In this document: in pieces, positions 25,196 through 36,190 of the stretch
Layout: each line of letters begins with the position of its first letter
How positions within the stretch are numbered: the first letter of the stretch is position 1
DNA from: Candidatus Brocadia pituitae
GTDB taxonomy: Bacteria; Planctomycetota; Brocadiia; Brocadiales; Brocadiaceae
DNA: 64,000 bases
Direction: 5' to 3'
Assembly (NCBI GenBank): GCA_017347445.1
Contig: AP021856.1
Span: forward strand, 2,798,613 to 2,862,612
The notes under the pieces: generated by a model
Databases searched by the model: none
What the model saw: the letters and a program-made list of their open reading frames with translations, nothing else
What the model was told of the DNA's origin: nothing
Program-made: the position numbers and the translations under genes

Positions 25196-25250
25196 ACAAA
25201 AAAAGCCTTACTGCAAAATGTTTATGGAAAACATTTTCGGCAGTAAGGCT
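25196..25250 (-). terminator. intrinsic terminator in the leader of the sigma-54 activator gene
   Basis: On the minus strand AGCCTTACTGC pairs with GCAGTAAGGCT-type arms around an inner AAAATGTTT/AAACATTTT stem, followed by seven U. It lies between the riboswitch and the gene, the expected place for an expression platform. An extra upstream copy of CCTTACTGC (complement of 25268-25276) could pair alternatively with the 3' arm. Confidence 0.85.
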
Positions 25251-25274
25251 GTCTTTTTCTGTCGGATGCAGTAA

Positions 25275-25365
25275 GGTTATCTTTAAAAACTACGTCCGTG
25301 TATGCTTAAAAGACCCTGTTACTTTGCGTCCCCCGATCACTCAGGGTTTGCTCTTATCGAAATGT
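25275..25365 (-). ncRNA. cyclic-di-GMP-I (GEMM) riboswitch, copy 1
   Basis: The minus-strand leader has the class I signature: GCAAACC, then a hairpin CCTGAGTGATCGGGG with a GNRA-type loop, then GGGACGCAAAG and AACAGGGTCTT. Known GEMM-I RNAs bind c-di-GMP with these conserved blocks. The 3' side (P3 and the closing strand of P1) is less canonical than in the copy at 56836. An intrinsic terminator follows, then the activator gene. Confidence 0.8.
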
Positions 25366-25519: not shown

Positions 25520-25567
25520 TGTGACATGGCACACAAGTGTGACGTGACAAAAGTGTGCCGTGTCACA
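25520..25567. promoter_or_regulatory. three palindromic activator sites (upstream activating sequence)
   Basis: Sites start at 25520 (TGTGACATGGCACA), 25538 (TGTGACGTGACAAA) and 25554 (TGTGCCGTGTCACA, inverted version of the first), spaced 18 and 16 bp. They lie about 120-170 bp upstream of the sigma-54-like promoter, the normal range for enhancer sites. The locus at 36143-36190 repeats the same three sites with identical spacing. They are likely bound by the adjacent activator, which is inference. Confidence 0.65.
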
Positions 25568-31452: not shown

Positions 31453-32473
31453 TTATTTTCTCTTTCTTTTCATCTCAATCGCAATCTCTTTCTCTTCCCC
31501 TTCTTCAAGCGTTACCGTCTCCTTGGCGTTTTTATACCTCTTTTTGCTTCCCGTGATTTTGTACGTATCCGCCTCTAAACCTGCAAATTCAAAGAACCCT
31601 ACTGCATCGGAGAGTGCCTTTTTTATAATCTTTGTCTCTACTCCTTTTGCCTTTACCTTTGCAGATTCAATGGGATTGCCCCCGGTATCTGCTACAAAGC
31701 CGGATATCTTACCCTTTACACCTTGAGTGGGTGTAGGTGTTGGTGTTGGTGTCGGTGACGGAATCAACGTTGGCGTAGGTGTTACCGTTGTCGTCGCGGT
31801 AGGTGTTGCAGTAGGTGTTGCGGTTGGTAACGGTGTAGGGGTTACAGATACAATCAAGTTTAAATATTTGACCTGTACGGGGGCGCTTTTACCCTCATCG
31901 GTCCCGTCTCCCAATTTACCGGAGCCATTACTTCCCCACGTCCAGGCCGTGCCATCTGACTTCACGGCCATGGTATGATTCCAACCAGCATCAACAGCAG
32001 TGACATTACTAAGTTCACCACTTACCTGCACAGGGATATTACTATCAACTGTTGTCTCATTTCCTAATTGACCACTCATATTCCATCCCCACGCCCAAAC
32101 CATGTCATCTGATTTCTGAATGACATTATGGCCGTGTCCACCTGCAATGGCAGTGACACCACTGAGGCCACTCACCTGCACAGGGACAGTACTCCAATTA
32201 ACAGTTGTCCCATCTCCTAATGCACCCCAAGAATTCGATCCCCATGTCCAGACCTTACCGTCTGACTTCAGGGCAACGGTATGTTCCCCTCCACCTGCAA
32301 TGGCGGTAACGTTGCTCAGTCCTATCGCCTGCACTACACCGTCCGTATCACCAAAGCTCCCGTTTCCCAATTGACCAACATGATTACTTCCCCATCCCCA
32401 GACCGTACCGTCTGACTTCAGGGTTATTATGTGCAGCCCTCCGGCGGCAATGGCGACGACGCTATCAAATCCA
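31453..32473 (-). pseudogene. 3' part of an RCC1-repeat surface protein gene split by an IS
   Basis: Continues the frame broken by the insertion sequence at 32478-33770. It encodes SGFDSVVAIAAGGLHIITLK and four or five more RCC1-type repeats (SDGKVWTWGSNSWGALGDGT). A Thr/Pro linker (PTATPTATPTATTTVTPT) follows. The C-terminal carboxypeptidase-regulatory-like beta domain includes GKISGFVADTGGNPIESAKV and FFEFAGLEADTYKITGSKKR. Joined to 33775-34303 it restores ...PTQVSGFDS..., exactly the repeat consensus QVSGL. The full protein was probably a secreted beta-propeller. Confidence 0.85.
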
Positions 32474-32477
32474 CTTA

Positions 32478-33770
32478 GTAGTCGTCAATAAATTAAATTT
32501 ACAATTAGGTATTTTTGCTTGGTTGAATTCGATAGTTCCATTCGCCATGAAATTTATCTGGAACGAGATTAATTTTCGCCATTTCCACGTCATTAACTTT
32601 GCATCCTATTGGGTATTTCCGTCTATCAAGACGACATACCACCGCCAGCCCCTTGGCCGTTGTCGTTCCAGCAATCAGGCGGACAACCGTTTCATAATCT
32701 CGCAGCGGTTCACCCCGCCAGTTGGACGAAATGAACGAGAAGAGGCGATGCTCTACCTTGTTCCACTTGCTCGTTCCCGGGGGAAAGTGACACACGGAAA
32801 TAGGAATGTCGATCTCGTCCGCCATTTTCTGTAGTTCTCGTTTCCATAGGCGCAATCGATAACCATTACTCCCCCCACTATCGGCCGTAATCAATAGTTC
32901 GGTCACCTTGGGGTATAACGTGCGGCCCTCGTGTCGCCACCACCCCCGAAGGGACGCAACCGCAAAGACGGCTGTATCGTGATCCGTACCTACGTTAACA
33001 AATCCACGATTCAATCCCAGATCATAAATGCCATACGGATAGGCCCGAGGGATGGATGGTTTCGGAAAGTCATGTCCGTTGACGCGGAGAGCATTCTTCG
33101 CTTTTCTCCATTGCCTGCCCTTGTTGTCGAAGTTACCAATCAACTCCTTTTTCTTCGTATCGACCGAAACAACAGGGTTCACGCAGGCCATCGCCTTGCG
33201 TACTTTTTTGTTGATGTACCGGAACTGCTTATCACGATCAGGATGGTCACTCCCCTCCTCTGTCTTTCGGTTCCCTTGAAGGCTATAACCCGTGGAGCGA
33301 AGTAATTGCGCGACCTTCTCGTGACTAATCAGGCATCCCTGACGGGTAAGCTCTTTTGCGAGCACGCGGGTACTTTTGCAGGTCCAGCGCAATGGCGATT
33401 CTGGATCCCCTCGGATCGATGGCTCAATCAATTCCTCCATCATGGCAGGCAAATCTGGTTTCGCAGAGACAAGACTCTGCCTTCCCGCCCCTTTGCGTCG
33501 TATCCTGATAACCGATGGCGACTCGTCCTCATTGGCTAGCTCGCGAATACCTTTGGTAATCGTCACGCGCGACAGTCCACAGGCACGACTCACCAAAGAA
33601 CCCCCCCCGCGTCCAAGCTGTTTTGCTTCTGCCGCGGCAAGAACCCGGCGTGAACGCTCGTTCAAATAAGGCCATACGTACAACAATTTCTCTTTTAAAC
33701 CCGCCTCGGTTGTCATACATAATAGTATAGCTTATCCTATATATTTGTAAAGTTAATATATTGACATTTC
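32478..33770 (-). mobile_element. ISAzo13-family insertion sequence
   Basis: About 1293 bp. The terminal inverted repeats begin GTCAATAWATTAA and extend about 21 bp with two mismatches (32484-32504 and 33745-33765). The tetranucleotide CTTA flanks both sides (32474-32477, 33771-33774) and is the probable target duplication. Exact ends are uncertain by one or two bases. Removal with one target copy restores the host RCC1 frame, so insertion is evolutionarily recent. Confidence 0.8.
32505..33716 (-). CDS. ISAzo13-family (Rhodopirellula-type DDE) transposase
   Basis: 403 residues. The N-terminal half has a helix-turn-helix (GGSLVSRACGLSRVTITKGI). The DDE core shows VSVDTKKKELIG (first Asp), LLITADSGGSNGYRLR (second Asp) and GTSKWNKVEHRLFSFIS (Glu). 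This is the pattern of the Rhodopirellula transposase family. The frame is complete, so the element may still be active. Confidence 0.9.
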   Translation of the reverse strand: MTTEAGLKEKLLYVWPYLNERSRRVLAAAEAKQLGRGGGSLVSRACGLSRVTITKGIRELANEDESPSVIRIRRKGAGRQSLVSAKPDLPAMMEELIEPSIRGDPESPLRWTCKSTRVLAKELTRQGCLISHEKVAQLLRSTGYSLQGNRKTEEGSDHPDRDKQFRYINKKVRKAMACVNPVVSVDTKKKELIGNFDNKGRQWRKAKNALRVNGHDFPKPSIPRAYPYGIYDLGLNRGFVNVGTDHDTAVFAVASLRGWWRHEGRTLYPKVTELLITADSGGSNGYRLRLWKRELQKMADEIDIPISVCHFPPGTSKWNKVEHRLFSFISSNWRGEPLRDYETVVRLIAGTTTAKGLAVVCRLDRRKYPIGCKVNDVEMAKINLVPDKFHGEWNYRIQPSKNT

Positions 33771-33774
33771 CTTA

Positions 33775-34303
33775 CCTGGGTGGGGATATTATCATAGGGG
33801 AAATCGTCGATCCAACCCCACTCCCAGACTGTGCCATCTGATCGCAGTGCCGTGGTAAACCACCATCCGGCTGCAATGGCAGCAACATCGTTGAGCCCAC
33901 TTACCTGCACAGGGGTATTTCTATCAGTGTTTGTCCCGTCTCCCAATTGTCCATATTTATTTTCTCCCCATGCCCAGACCGTACCATCTGACTTCAGGGC
34001 AACGTTATGCTCCGATCCGGCTGCAATAGCAATAACGTCACTGAGCCCAACTACCTGCACACGGTAATTACTATAATTATTTGTCCCATCTCCCAATTGA
34101 CCCCAAAAATTCGATCCCCATGCCCAGACTGTACCATCTGACTTCAGGGCGATGGTGTGGAAAGCTCCACCGGAGATTTTGGGGGTTACCGATGCGGACG
34201 CTGTCCCGATGACAGTCAATGCCACAAACAACGAAAACAAAATTACGAGATACCCAAAATAACTAAATCTGCGATACGTAGAATCGAAAGATATGTTACG
34301 CAT
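33775..34303 (-). pseudogene. 5' part of the RCC1-repeat surface protein gene
   Basis: The ATG at 34303 has GGAGG 10 nt upstream; the frame extends upstream to 34477 without a site. A signal peptide (FGYLVILFSLFVALTVIGTASA) is followed by three RCC1-type repeats (ALKSDGTVWAWGSNFWGQLGDGTN). The frame then runs into the IS at 33770 and stops at 33737. It pairs with the 3' part at 31453-32473. Confidence 0.85.
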
Positions 34304-34473: not shown

Positions 34474-34700
34474 TCATCCCCCACTTAATGTTGGATGCTC
34501 AATCGCACCGATGTCGTAATCCGACCCATCTCCAGTTCCACCTGCCCCCAGTCCATCACCATCCCGTAGCCTTGTCGTACCAGTTATGTCATCCAGAACC
34601 GAGCCGAATGAAGTACCTGAGGTATTCCATCCCTGTATCTATGGCTGGAGACCCAGGCTGCAAGGCATAATTACCAGGCGGCTTATCTACCCCTTGAATT
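34474..34700 (-). pseudogene. C-terminal relic of a parallel beta-helix surface protein
   Basis: Two minus-strand frames joined by one frameshift read VDKPPGNYALQPGSPAIDTG and then DDITGTTRLRDGDG ... GSDYDIGAIEHPTLSGG before a stop. The YxLQxGSPAIDxG and DIGAxE motifs mark the C-terminal end of secreted right-handed beta-helix proteins. The body is missing; the remaining piece sits directly behind a decayed riboswitch leader. Confidence 0.6.
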
Positions 34701-34719
34701 GCGAAGTTCGGGCTAAGAA

Positions 34720-34772
34720 TACTCTGTCCACGCTTCGCCTAATCACTCAGGGTTTGCCTTTATCGAATGTAT
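34720..34772 (-). ncRNA. decayed cyclic-di-GMP-I riboswitch, copy 3
   Basis: On the minus strand GGCAAACC and the hairpin CCTGAGTGATTAGG match the other copies, as does the upstream ATACATTCGATAAAGG. The next block, GGGACGCAAAG, is replaced by unrelated sequence and no terminator follows. It is a truncated remnant leading into the beta-helix relic. Confidence 0.6.
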
Positions 34773-34787
34773 CTGTTATATGGAAAC

Positions 34788-34804
34788 TGACAAAAAAGAT
34801 GCCA
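34788..34804 (-). promoter_or_regulatory. sigma-54-like promoter of the decayed cassette
   Basis: The minus strand reads TGGCATCTTTTTTGTCA, the best match of the three to TGGCAY-N5-TTG, with GG and GT 10 bp apart. It stands at the same distance from the riboswitch core as in the two intact cassettes. The palindromic sites seen upstream in those cassettes are absent here. Confidence 0.55.
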
Positions 34805-34961
34805 TATTCTATATGCAAGGTCATACCACAAGAGATCGTTATCCCCCCAACCCGAACAAGTCAGAAAAGACAAATACAGAAATACGAGTTTACGAGGTAT
34901 ACTCAAGAGGCTCACAATTTGTGATTTACAAACTTGATACCGGGTCGCCATAATCTAACGA

Positions 34962-35124
34962 GGTGGCACGGACAAGCTGTGCTTGTCCGTGTTTTTGCAT
35001 CCCTGCTTACTTCCTTGTGCTTGCGCGGTTTGCCTTGTAATGTCTATCCACGTGTTAAAATGAATACTTCGTACACAATGTCGTGCAAGTCCAGCACGGA
35101 CAAACGGAGTTTGTCCGTGCCACC
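34962..35124. repeat. 163-bp MITE-like palindromic element
   Basis: Perfect 14-bp terminal inverted repeats GGTGGCACGGACAA. Each end also folds on itself (CACGGACAAGC/GCTTGTCCGTG and GCACGGACAAAC/GTTTGTCCGTGC-type hairpins). No coding capacity. It sits where the upstream activating sites of the decayed cassette would be expected. Confidence 0.65.
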
Positions 35125-35168
35125 CTGTTACCAATTGAAAATTCATCTTCTATGAATATCCTGAGTAT

Positions 35169-35201
35169 AACCCTGTCAGGATTTTAAACCCTGACAGGGT
35201 T
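35169..35201. terminator. hairpin downstream of the small secreted-protein gene
   Basis: AACCCTGTCAGG and CCTGACAGGGTT pair around a 7-nt loop, 50 bp past the stop of the gene at 35253. No U tract is present; the AACCCTG palindrome recurs at 47704-47718, so it may be a dispersed repeat instead. Confidence 0.4.
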
Positions 35202-35830: not shown

Positions 35831-35884
35831 ACAAAAAAGCCTTACTGTAAAGATTTTTCATTAAACATCTTCGGCAGTAAGGCT
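35831..35884 (-). terminator. intrinsic terminator in the leader of the secreted-protein gene
   Basis: The minus strand reads AGCCTTACTGCCGAAGATGT, a short loop, then ATCTTTACAGTAAGGCTTTTTT. The outer stem and U tract are almost the same as at 25196-25250 and 56967-57020. Confidence 0.85.
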
Positions 35885-35985
35885 ATCTTTTTCAAAGCCG
35901 TTTGAACGGTTTAAGCGGTTCAAAAGACTCGCAAGACCCTGTTACTTTGCGTCCCCTGATCACTCAGGGTTTACCATTTATCGAA
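35885..35985 (-). ncRNA. cyclic-di-GMP-I (GEMM) riboswitch, copy 2
   Basis: Minus-strand blocks GTAAACC, the hairpin CCTGAGTGATCAGGGG with GNRA-like loop, GGGACGCAAAG, AACAGGGTCTT and a second hairpin TTGAAC/GTTCAA. The order matches class I c-di-GMP aptamers. It is followed directly by the terminator and then the small secreted-protein gene. Confidence 0.8.
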
Positions 35986-36142: not shown

Positions 36143-36190
36143 TGTGACATGGCACGCAAGTGTGACGCTACATAAATGTGCCATGTCACG
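36143..36190. promoter_or_regulatory. three palindromic activator sites, second locus
   Basis: TGTGACATGGCACG at 36143, TGTGACGCTACATA at 36161 and TGTGCCATGTCACG at 36177. Spacings of 18 and 16 bp equal those at 25520-25567, and the set starts 120 bp upstream of the -24 element (123 bp at the other locus). Confidence 0.65.

What the first reader, a model, noticed from the sequence alone, without database searches (positions are those of the whole stretch)
34474..34804. Third, decaying copy of the cassette in front of a beta-helix surface-protein relic
Seen: a sigma-54-like element (the best of the three), the first half of the GEMM aptamer at the conserved distance, no terminator, and directly behind it a frameshifted C-terminus with YALQPGSPAIDTG and DIGAIE motifs. 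A MITE occupies the place of the upstream sites. Inference: the cassette once drove another surface protein, so its regulon is surface/matrix proteins and loci are being lost.
Basis: partly seen in the sequence, partly recalled or inferred. Interest (0 to 1): 0.6.

Follow-up and report, generated by a model that had tools for sequence, protein, structure and literature searches.

The report
Broken riboswitch leader of anammox bacterium
This is the wreck of a gene control region in an anammox bacterium, cut through by mobile DNA and fused to the last scrap of a surface-protein gene; the scrap is ordinary decay, but its intact relatives form a conserved switch family, apparently undescribed, in front of many surface-protein genes.

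Summary
On the minus strand, 34804-34718 carries a sigma-54-like -24/-12 element and the decayed first half of a c-di-GMP-I (GEMM) aptamer, 85% identical over 75 bp to the intact leader at 35.9 kb (E 2e-15 genome-wide). There is no second half and no terminator. A 272-bp MITE (34898-35169) covers the place where intact leaders carry their enhancer site. The gene scrap behind the half-aptamer, its two reading frames joined for the search, scores above the NCBIfam cut-off for choice-of-anchor Q, a surface-protein C-terminus.
New here: the join is the outer 39 bp of an insertion sequence, so the likely history is IS insertion into the aptamer, then a deletion into the gene.
The host is a Brocadiaceae anammox bacterium. 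The intact leader (46-bp triple-dyad enhancer site, sigma-54 promoter about 120 nt on, c-di-GMP-I riboswitch, terminator) recurs about nine times here and in most congeners, mostly before secreted, surface or lipoprotein genes and before a sigma-54 activator. The surface-regulon inference is therefore supported, but by the intact copies. That this relic's gene was driven by this leader is plausible but unproven: no intact orthologue was found.

The parts
34898..35169 (.). MITE with inverted terminal repeats TATACTCAAGAGG/TCCTGAGTATA; covers the expected position of the enhancer site (about 34925-34970)
   Evidence: aligned full-length copies elsewhere in the genome; also in congeners
34842..34870 (-). 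Fragment of another dispersed intergenic repeat (TTTGTCTTTTCYGACTYGTTCGGGTTGGG) in what should be the native enhancer-promoter spacer
34790..34804 (-). Sigma-54-like promoter element TGGCATCTTTTTTGT (GG-N10-GT)
   Evidence: same place relative to the aptamer as in intact leaders
34718..34767 (-). 5' half of a c-di-GMP-I aptamer, decayed after GATTAGG, ending at the position of GGGTCTT in intact copies
34678..34716 (-). Terminal 39 bp of an insertion sequence (about 2.0 kb, DDE transposase; TTAGCCCGACCTTCGCAATTC end), outer end towards the aptamer, inner end fused to the gene relic
34474..34675 (-). Relic of a choice-of-anchor Q C-terminus: GNYALQPGSPAIDTG in one frame, then DDITGTTRLRDGDGLGAGGTGDGSDYDIGAIEHPTLSGG and stop in another
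35870..35985 (-). Nearest intact relative: c-di-GMP-I riboswitch with sigma-54 element (36023-36009) and triple-dyad enhancer site (36144-36189), before a 145-aa secreted protein (35690-35253)
25236..25362 (-). Second intact sigma-54-type cassette, before a 452-aa sigma-54 response regulator (25112-23754); enhancer site at 25521-25566

Best explanation
The stretch is a dead member of a family of composite leaders in Brocadiaceae. An intact leader has a 46-bp triple-dyad enhancer site (GTGNCATGNCAC at both ends, a degenerate dyad between), a sigma-54 promoter about 120 nt downstream and, 30-70 nt after that, a c-di-GMP-I riboswitch whose 3' strand is shared with an intrinsic terminator. Inferred mechanism of intact copies: an unidentified sigma-54 activator starts transcription, and c-di-GMP binding keeps the terminator from forming, so the gene needs both keys. 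In this copy, by inference, an insertion sequence landed in the aptamer just after its first half, and a deletion from inside the IS into the downstream gene removed the second half, the terminator and most of a choice-of-anchor Q surface-protein gene. The gene tail then frameshifted, and a MITE plus another repeat fragment took the place of the enhancer and spacer. The remnant should bind no ligand, terminate nothing and not be activatable. Shown: anatomy, IS end, MITE, relic domain, family conservation. Inferred: order of events, that the relic was this leader's own gene, and the two-key logic.
For: 85% identity over 75 bp to the 35.9-kb leader, E 2e-15; five-leader alignment; IS end shared with copies forming a ~2.0-kb element with inverted ends and a DDE transposase; MITE copies; relic above the family cut-off once the two frames are joined; no terminator; conserved enhancer site in 19 of 59 relatives, no hit of the reversed control pattern in any; enhancer to sigma-54 mostly 108-134 nt, usually 117-126; RpoN present in the genome; downstream genes largely secreted or surface.
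Against: No intact orthologue to show that leader and gene belonged together; the junction carries IS sequence, so the gene tail could come from elsewhere. The -12 half is GT rather than GC, as in the two intact sigma-54 leaders of the window. The activator is unidentified: orthologues of the 452-aa regulator and the enhancer site do not co-occur perfectly. No expression data.
Confidence: 0.7

Rival explanations
1. Half-leader and gene relic were never one unit: two independent remnants brought together by IS- and MITE-mediated rearrangement in a repeat-rich graveyard.
For: An IS end lies exactly between them; MITE, a second repeat and other intergenic repeats surround them; the choice-of-anchor Q gene over the cut-off in the genus (G007) has no c-di-GMP-I riboswitch in the 9 kb read.
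Against: Same orientation, and a single IS insertion plus one deletion explains the order with fewer steps.
Confidence: 0.35
2. The half-leader is a partial tandem duplicate of the 35.9-kb leader that never had its own gene.
For: Its best match in the genome is the neighbour 1.2 kb away in the same orientation.
Against: 15% divergence over only 75 bp; a leader in another species (L160) and the 25-kb leader are nearly as close (81-83%); flanking sequence is not shared.
Confidence: 0.15
3. The surviving promoter still drives the RCC1-repeat surface-protein gene that starts at 34303.
For: The promoter points at it; an RCC1 surface protein has a full cassette in a congener (L179).
Against: No enhancer site is left, there are about 500 nt of debris between, and that gene is itself split by an ISAzo13-family transposase. 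A possible aptamer 3' remnant before the gene is not better than chance.
Confidence: 0.05

Closest known systems
c-di-GMP-I (GEMM) riboswitch, Rfam RF01051
   Same: The first half of the aptamer is here; about 45 full copies in the genome
   Different: No second half, no terminator, far below the gathering score
Sigma-54 promoters with an NtrC-type upstream activating site
   Same: GG-N10-GC/GT element; intact copies have a site about 120 nt upstream; RpoN present
   Different: Triple dyad with 17-bp pitch (GTGNCATGNCAC); in this copy the site is gone
PEP-CTERM upstream element with PrsR/PrsK and sigma-54 (Haft et al. 2006, PMC1569441)
   Same: Sigma-54 control of single surface-protein genes with long leaders; the 25-kb regulator matches TIGR02915 below its cut-off
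   Different: That enhancer motif ends in TTTACA and sits about 63 nt from the promoter; no riboswitch is reported in the passages read
Choice-of-anchor Q domain proteins, NCBIfam NF041518
   Same: C-terminal motifs SPAIDTG and DIGAIE; 30.3 bits when the two frames are joined
   Different: Frameshifted tail only
c-di-GMP riboswitches before surface or biofilm genes in Geobacter, Bacillus and Clostridioides
   Same: c-di-GMP riboswitch upstream of adhesion or biofilm genes (e.g. abstract of PMC7423583; PMC13194489)
   Different: No paired sigma-54 enhancer element in what I read; targeted searches found no report for anammox bacteria

Membership tests
c-di-GMP-I riboswitch (RF01051 / clan CL00126) | Score above the family gathering cut-off | tested here: not met
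   18.9 bits to RF03167 (cut-off 59), E 0.03
c-di-GMP-I riboswitch (RF01051 / clan CL00126) | 5' half with GGCAAACC and the first hairpin | tested here: met
   AAGGCAAACCCTGAGTGATTAGG; alignment
c-di-GMP-I riboswitch (RF01051 / clan CL00126) | 3' strand (AGCC..CTGCCGAA) closing the aptamer | tested here: not met
   Replaced by IS end; no significant remnant further down
Sigma-54-dependent promoter | -24 GG and -12 GC spaced by 10 | tested here: inconclusive
   GG-N10-GT, matrix score 7.8, shuffle p 0.026; intact sigma-54 leaders of the window share GT
Sigma-54-dependent promoter | Upstream activator site | tested here: not met
   Site pattern not found here; MITE at the expected place
Sigma-54-dependent promoter | RpoN encoded in the genome | tested here: met
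   PF04552, E 1e-60
Choice-of-anchor Q (NF041518) | Score above curated cut-off 25 | tested here: met
   30.3 bits for the two-frame composite only; 18.9 bits for the first frame alone
Choice-of-anchor Q (NF041518) | Intact secreted protein | tested here: not met
   Frameshifted tail of about 65 codons

The most novel reading that the evidence does not exclude
The remnant belongs to a conserved, apparently undescribed two-key regulon of anammox bacteria: a triple-dyad enhancer site plus sigma-54 promoter plus c-di-GMP-activated antitermination in front of surface, matrix and polysaccharide genes and of a sigma-54 activator itself, with the bare enhancer site also present in some Desulfuromonadales and Syntrophaceae genomes.
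Probability: 0.65. Interest if true: 0.6.

Novelty: new variant of a known kind. Interest (0 to 1): 0.38.

Why it matters
Anammox bacteria live as granules, and how they control their matrix proteins is, as far as I could find, largely open. The intact relatives of this wreck give a testable list of matrix genes under joint sigma-54 and c-di-GMP control. The wreck itself shows how such a locus can be lost to mobile elements.

Tried and rejected
A 3' aptamer remnant before the RCC1 gene (TGCCGAAGATAT): 52 of 400 Markov shuffles score as high, so chance. The PEP-CTERM box as the enhancer motif: different sequence. The 452-aa sigma-54 response regulator, or the PocR-type sigma-54 activator, as the sole activator: neither matches the distribution of the enhancer site across relatives. 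Intact orthologue search by DNA, relic protein and choice_anch_Q family: none found. Other half-aptamers in the genome: of the six extra near-matches, the four I inspected are full length; two were not inspected. Searches returned errors and gave nothing.

Full report
What is there. The window lies in a closed 4.08-Mb genome of a Brocadiaceae anammox bacterium (genomes with the same site pattern include several named Candidatus Brocadia; an RCC1 protein here also hits the anammox S-layer model). All parts of the finding are read on the minus strand. From 5' to 3': a MITE (35169-34898), a fragment of another dispersed repeat (34870-34842), a sigma-54-like element (34804-34790), the first half of a c-di-GMP-I aptamer (34767-34718), the end of an insertion sequence (34716-34678), and a frameshifted protein tail (34675-34474).

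Is it more than chance? The promoter and half-aptamer align over 75 bp at 85% to the intact leader 1.2 kb away (E 2e-15 in a whole-genome search), and to further leaders of the same type at 76-83%. Rfam gives only 18.9 bits because half the aptamer is missing. No terminator is found. The element is comparable to, not clearly better than, the other two (the matrix used frequencies from memory).

The relic. One frame reads GNYALQPGSPAIDTG, another DDITGTTRLRDGDGLGAGGTGDGSDYDIGAIEHPTLSGG and a stop. Joined only for a search, they score 30.3 bits against the choice-of-anchor Q model, above its cut-off of 25; singly they give 18.9 bits and nothing. The score above the cut-off therefore depends on joining the frames by hand. 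No choice-of-anchor Q gene was found elsewhere in this genome.

The junction. Positions 34716-34678 match the end of an insertion sequence present as several ~2.0-kb elements with inverted ends and a DDE transposase, and as solo ends. Its outer end faces the aptamer; its inner end is fused to the gene tail. The simplest history is insertion into the aptamer followed by a deletion running from inside the element into the gene. This is inference: the same IS sequence would also be expected if the tail came from elsewhere.

The upstream side. Intact leaders here and in congeners carry a 46-bp site, GTGNCATGNCAC-N22-GTGNCATGNCAC with a degenerate dyad in the middle. It occurs in 19 of 59 relatives (10 of the 11 genomes of the genus), while the reversed control pattern occurs in none. 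It ends usually 117-126 nt before the sigma-54 element, and the aptamer core begins 153-193 nt after it in most cases. At 34.8 kb the expected place (about 34925-34970) is occupied by the MITE. In named genomes the site pattern occurs in Brocadia, Jettenia, Loosdrechtia, Scalindua and in some deltaproteobacteria; the Sorangium hits look like GC-rich tandem repeats.

The regulon. Genes behind full cassettes include the 452-aa sigma-54 response regulator (also in G008, and in G006 behind the site with an aptamer further down), a 145-aa secreted protein, Kelch, SBBP and RCC1 repeat proteins, caspase-PEGA, autotransporter and IgGFc-binding-like proteins, a lipoprotein and a polysaccharide biosynthesis protein. 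Genes behind the enhancer and sigma-54 promoter without an obvious riboswitch include sensor (Cache/HAMP/PAS), PocR-type sigma-54 activator and LuxR-type genes. So 'surface/matrix regulon' is right in the main and incomplete. Gene starts were taken mechanically, as the longest reading frame near the leader, and secretion was judged by eye from the N-termini.

Mechanism of intact copies (inference). RpoN is encoded. The 3' strand of the aptamer, AGCCTTACTGC, can pair with GCAGTAAGGCT before the T-run, so ligand binding and terminator formation exclude each other, which predicts an ON switch. This is read from the sequences; the plain fold of one leader was not distinctive. The activator is not identified.

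What remains open. No orthologous locus was found, so I put the claim that this leader drove this gene at about 0.55-0.6. Literature searches found no report of the paired element in anammox bacteria, in a library that lacks most subscription journals.

Noticed in passing
window 31453-34303 (-): An RCC1-repeat surface-protein gene is split by an ISAzo13-family transposase (32505-33716): the N-terminal part starts at 34303, and the C-terminal part with a carboxypeptidase-regulatory-like domain lies at 32370-31453.
   Followed up: partly
G000 C1:521483, 2109712, 2366372, 2542256 (L150-L153): Four further triple-dyad sites with no c-di-GMP-I riboswitch listed; two have a sigma-54-like element at the usual distance, before a Cache/HAMP/PAS sensor and a 472-aa membrane protein.
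   Followed up: partly
L205, L216, L223, L227, L233, L235, L236, L241, L245: The triple-dyad site also occurs in Malonomonas, Desulfuromusa, Syntrophaceae, Desulfobacteraceae and other deltaproteobacteria, without a riboswitch found by a simple pattern; in Malonomonas a chemotaxis-receptor gene follows.
   Followed up: partly
G000 C1:329486-330013 (-): A broken relative (78% identity, several stop codons) of the 452-aa sigma-54 response regulator.
   Followed up: no
G000 C1:831000-839000 and 3049000-3050400: Clusters of c-di-GMP-I leaders with closely similar upstream sequences, some not listed by the family search; suggests repeated duplication of such leaders.
   Followed up: no
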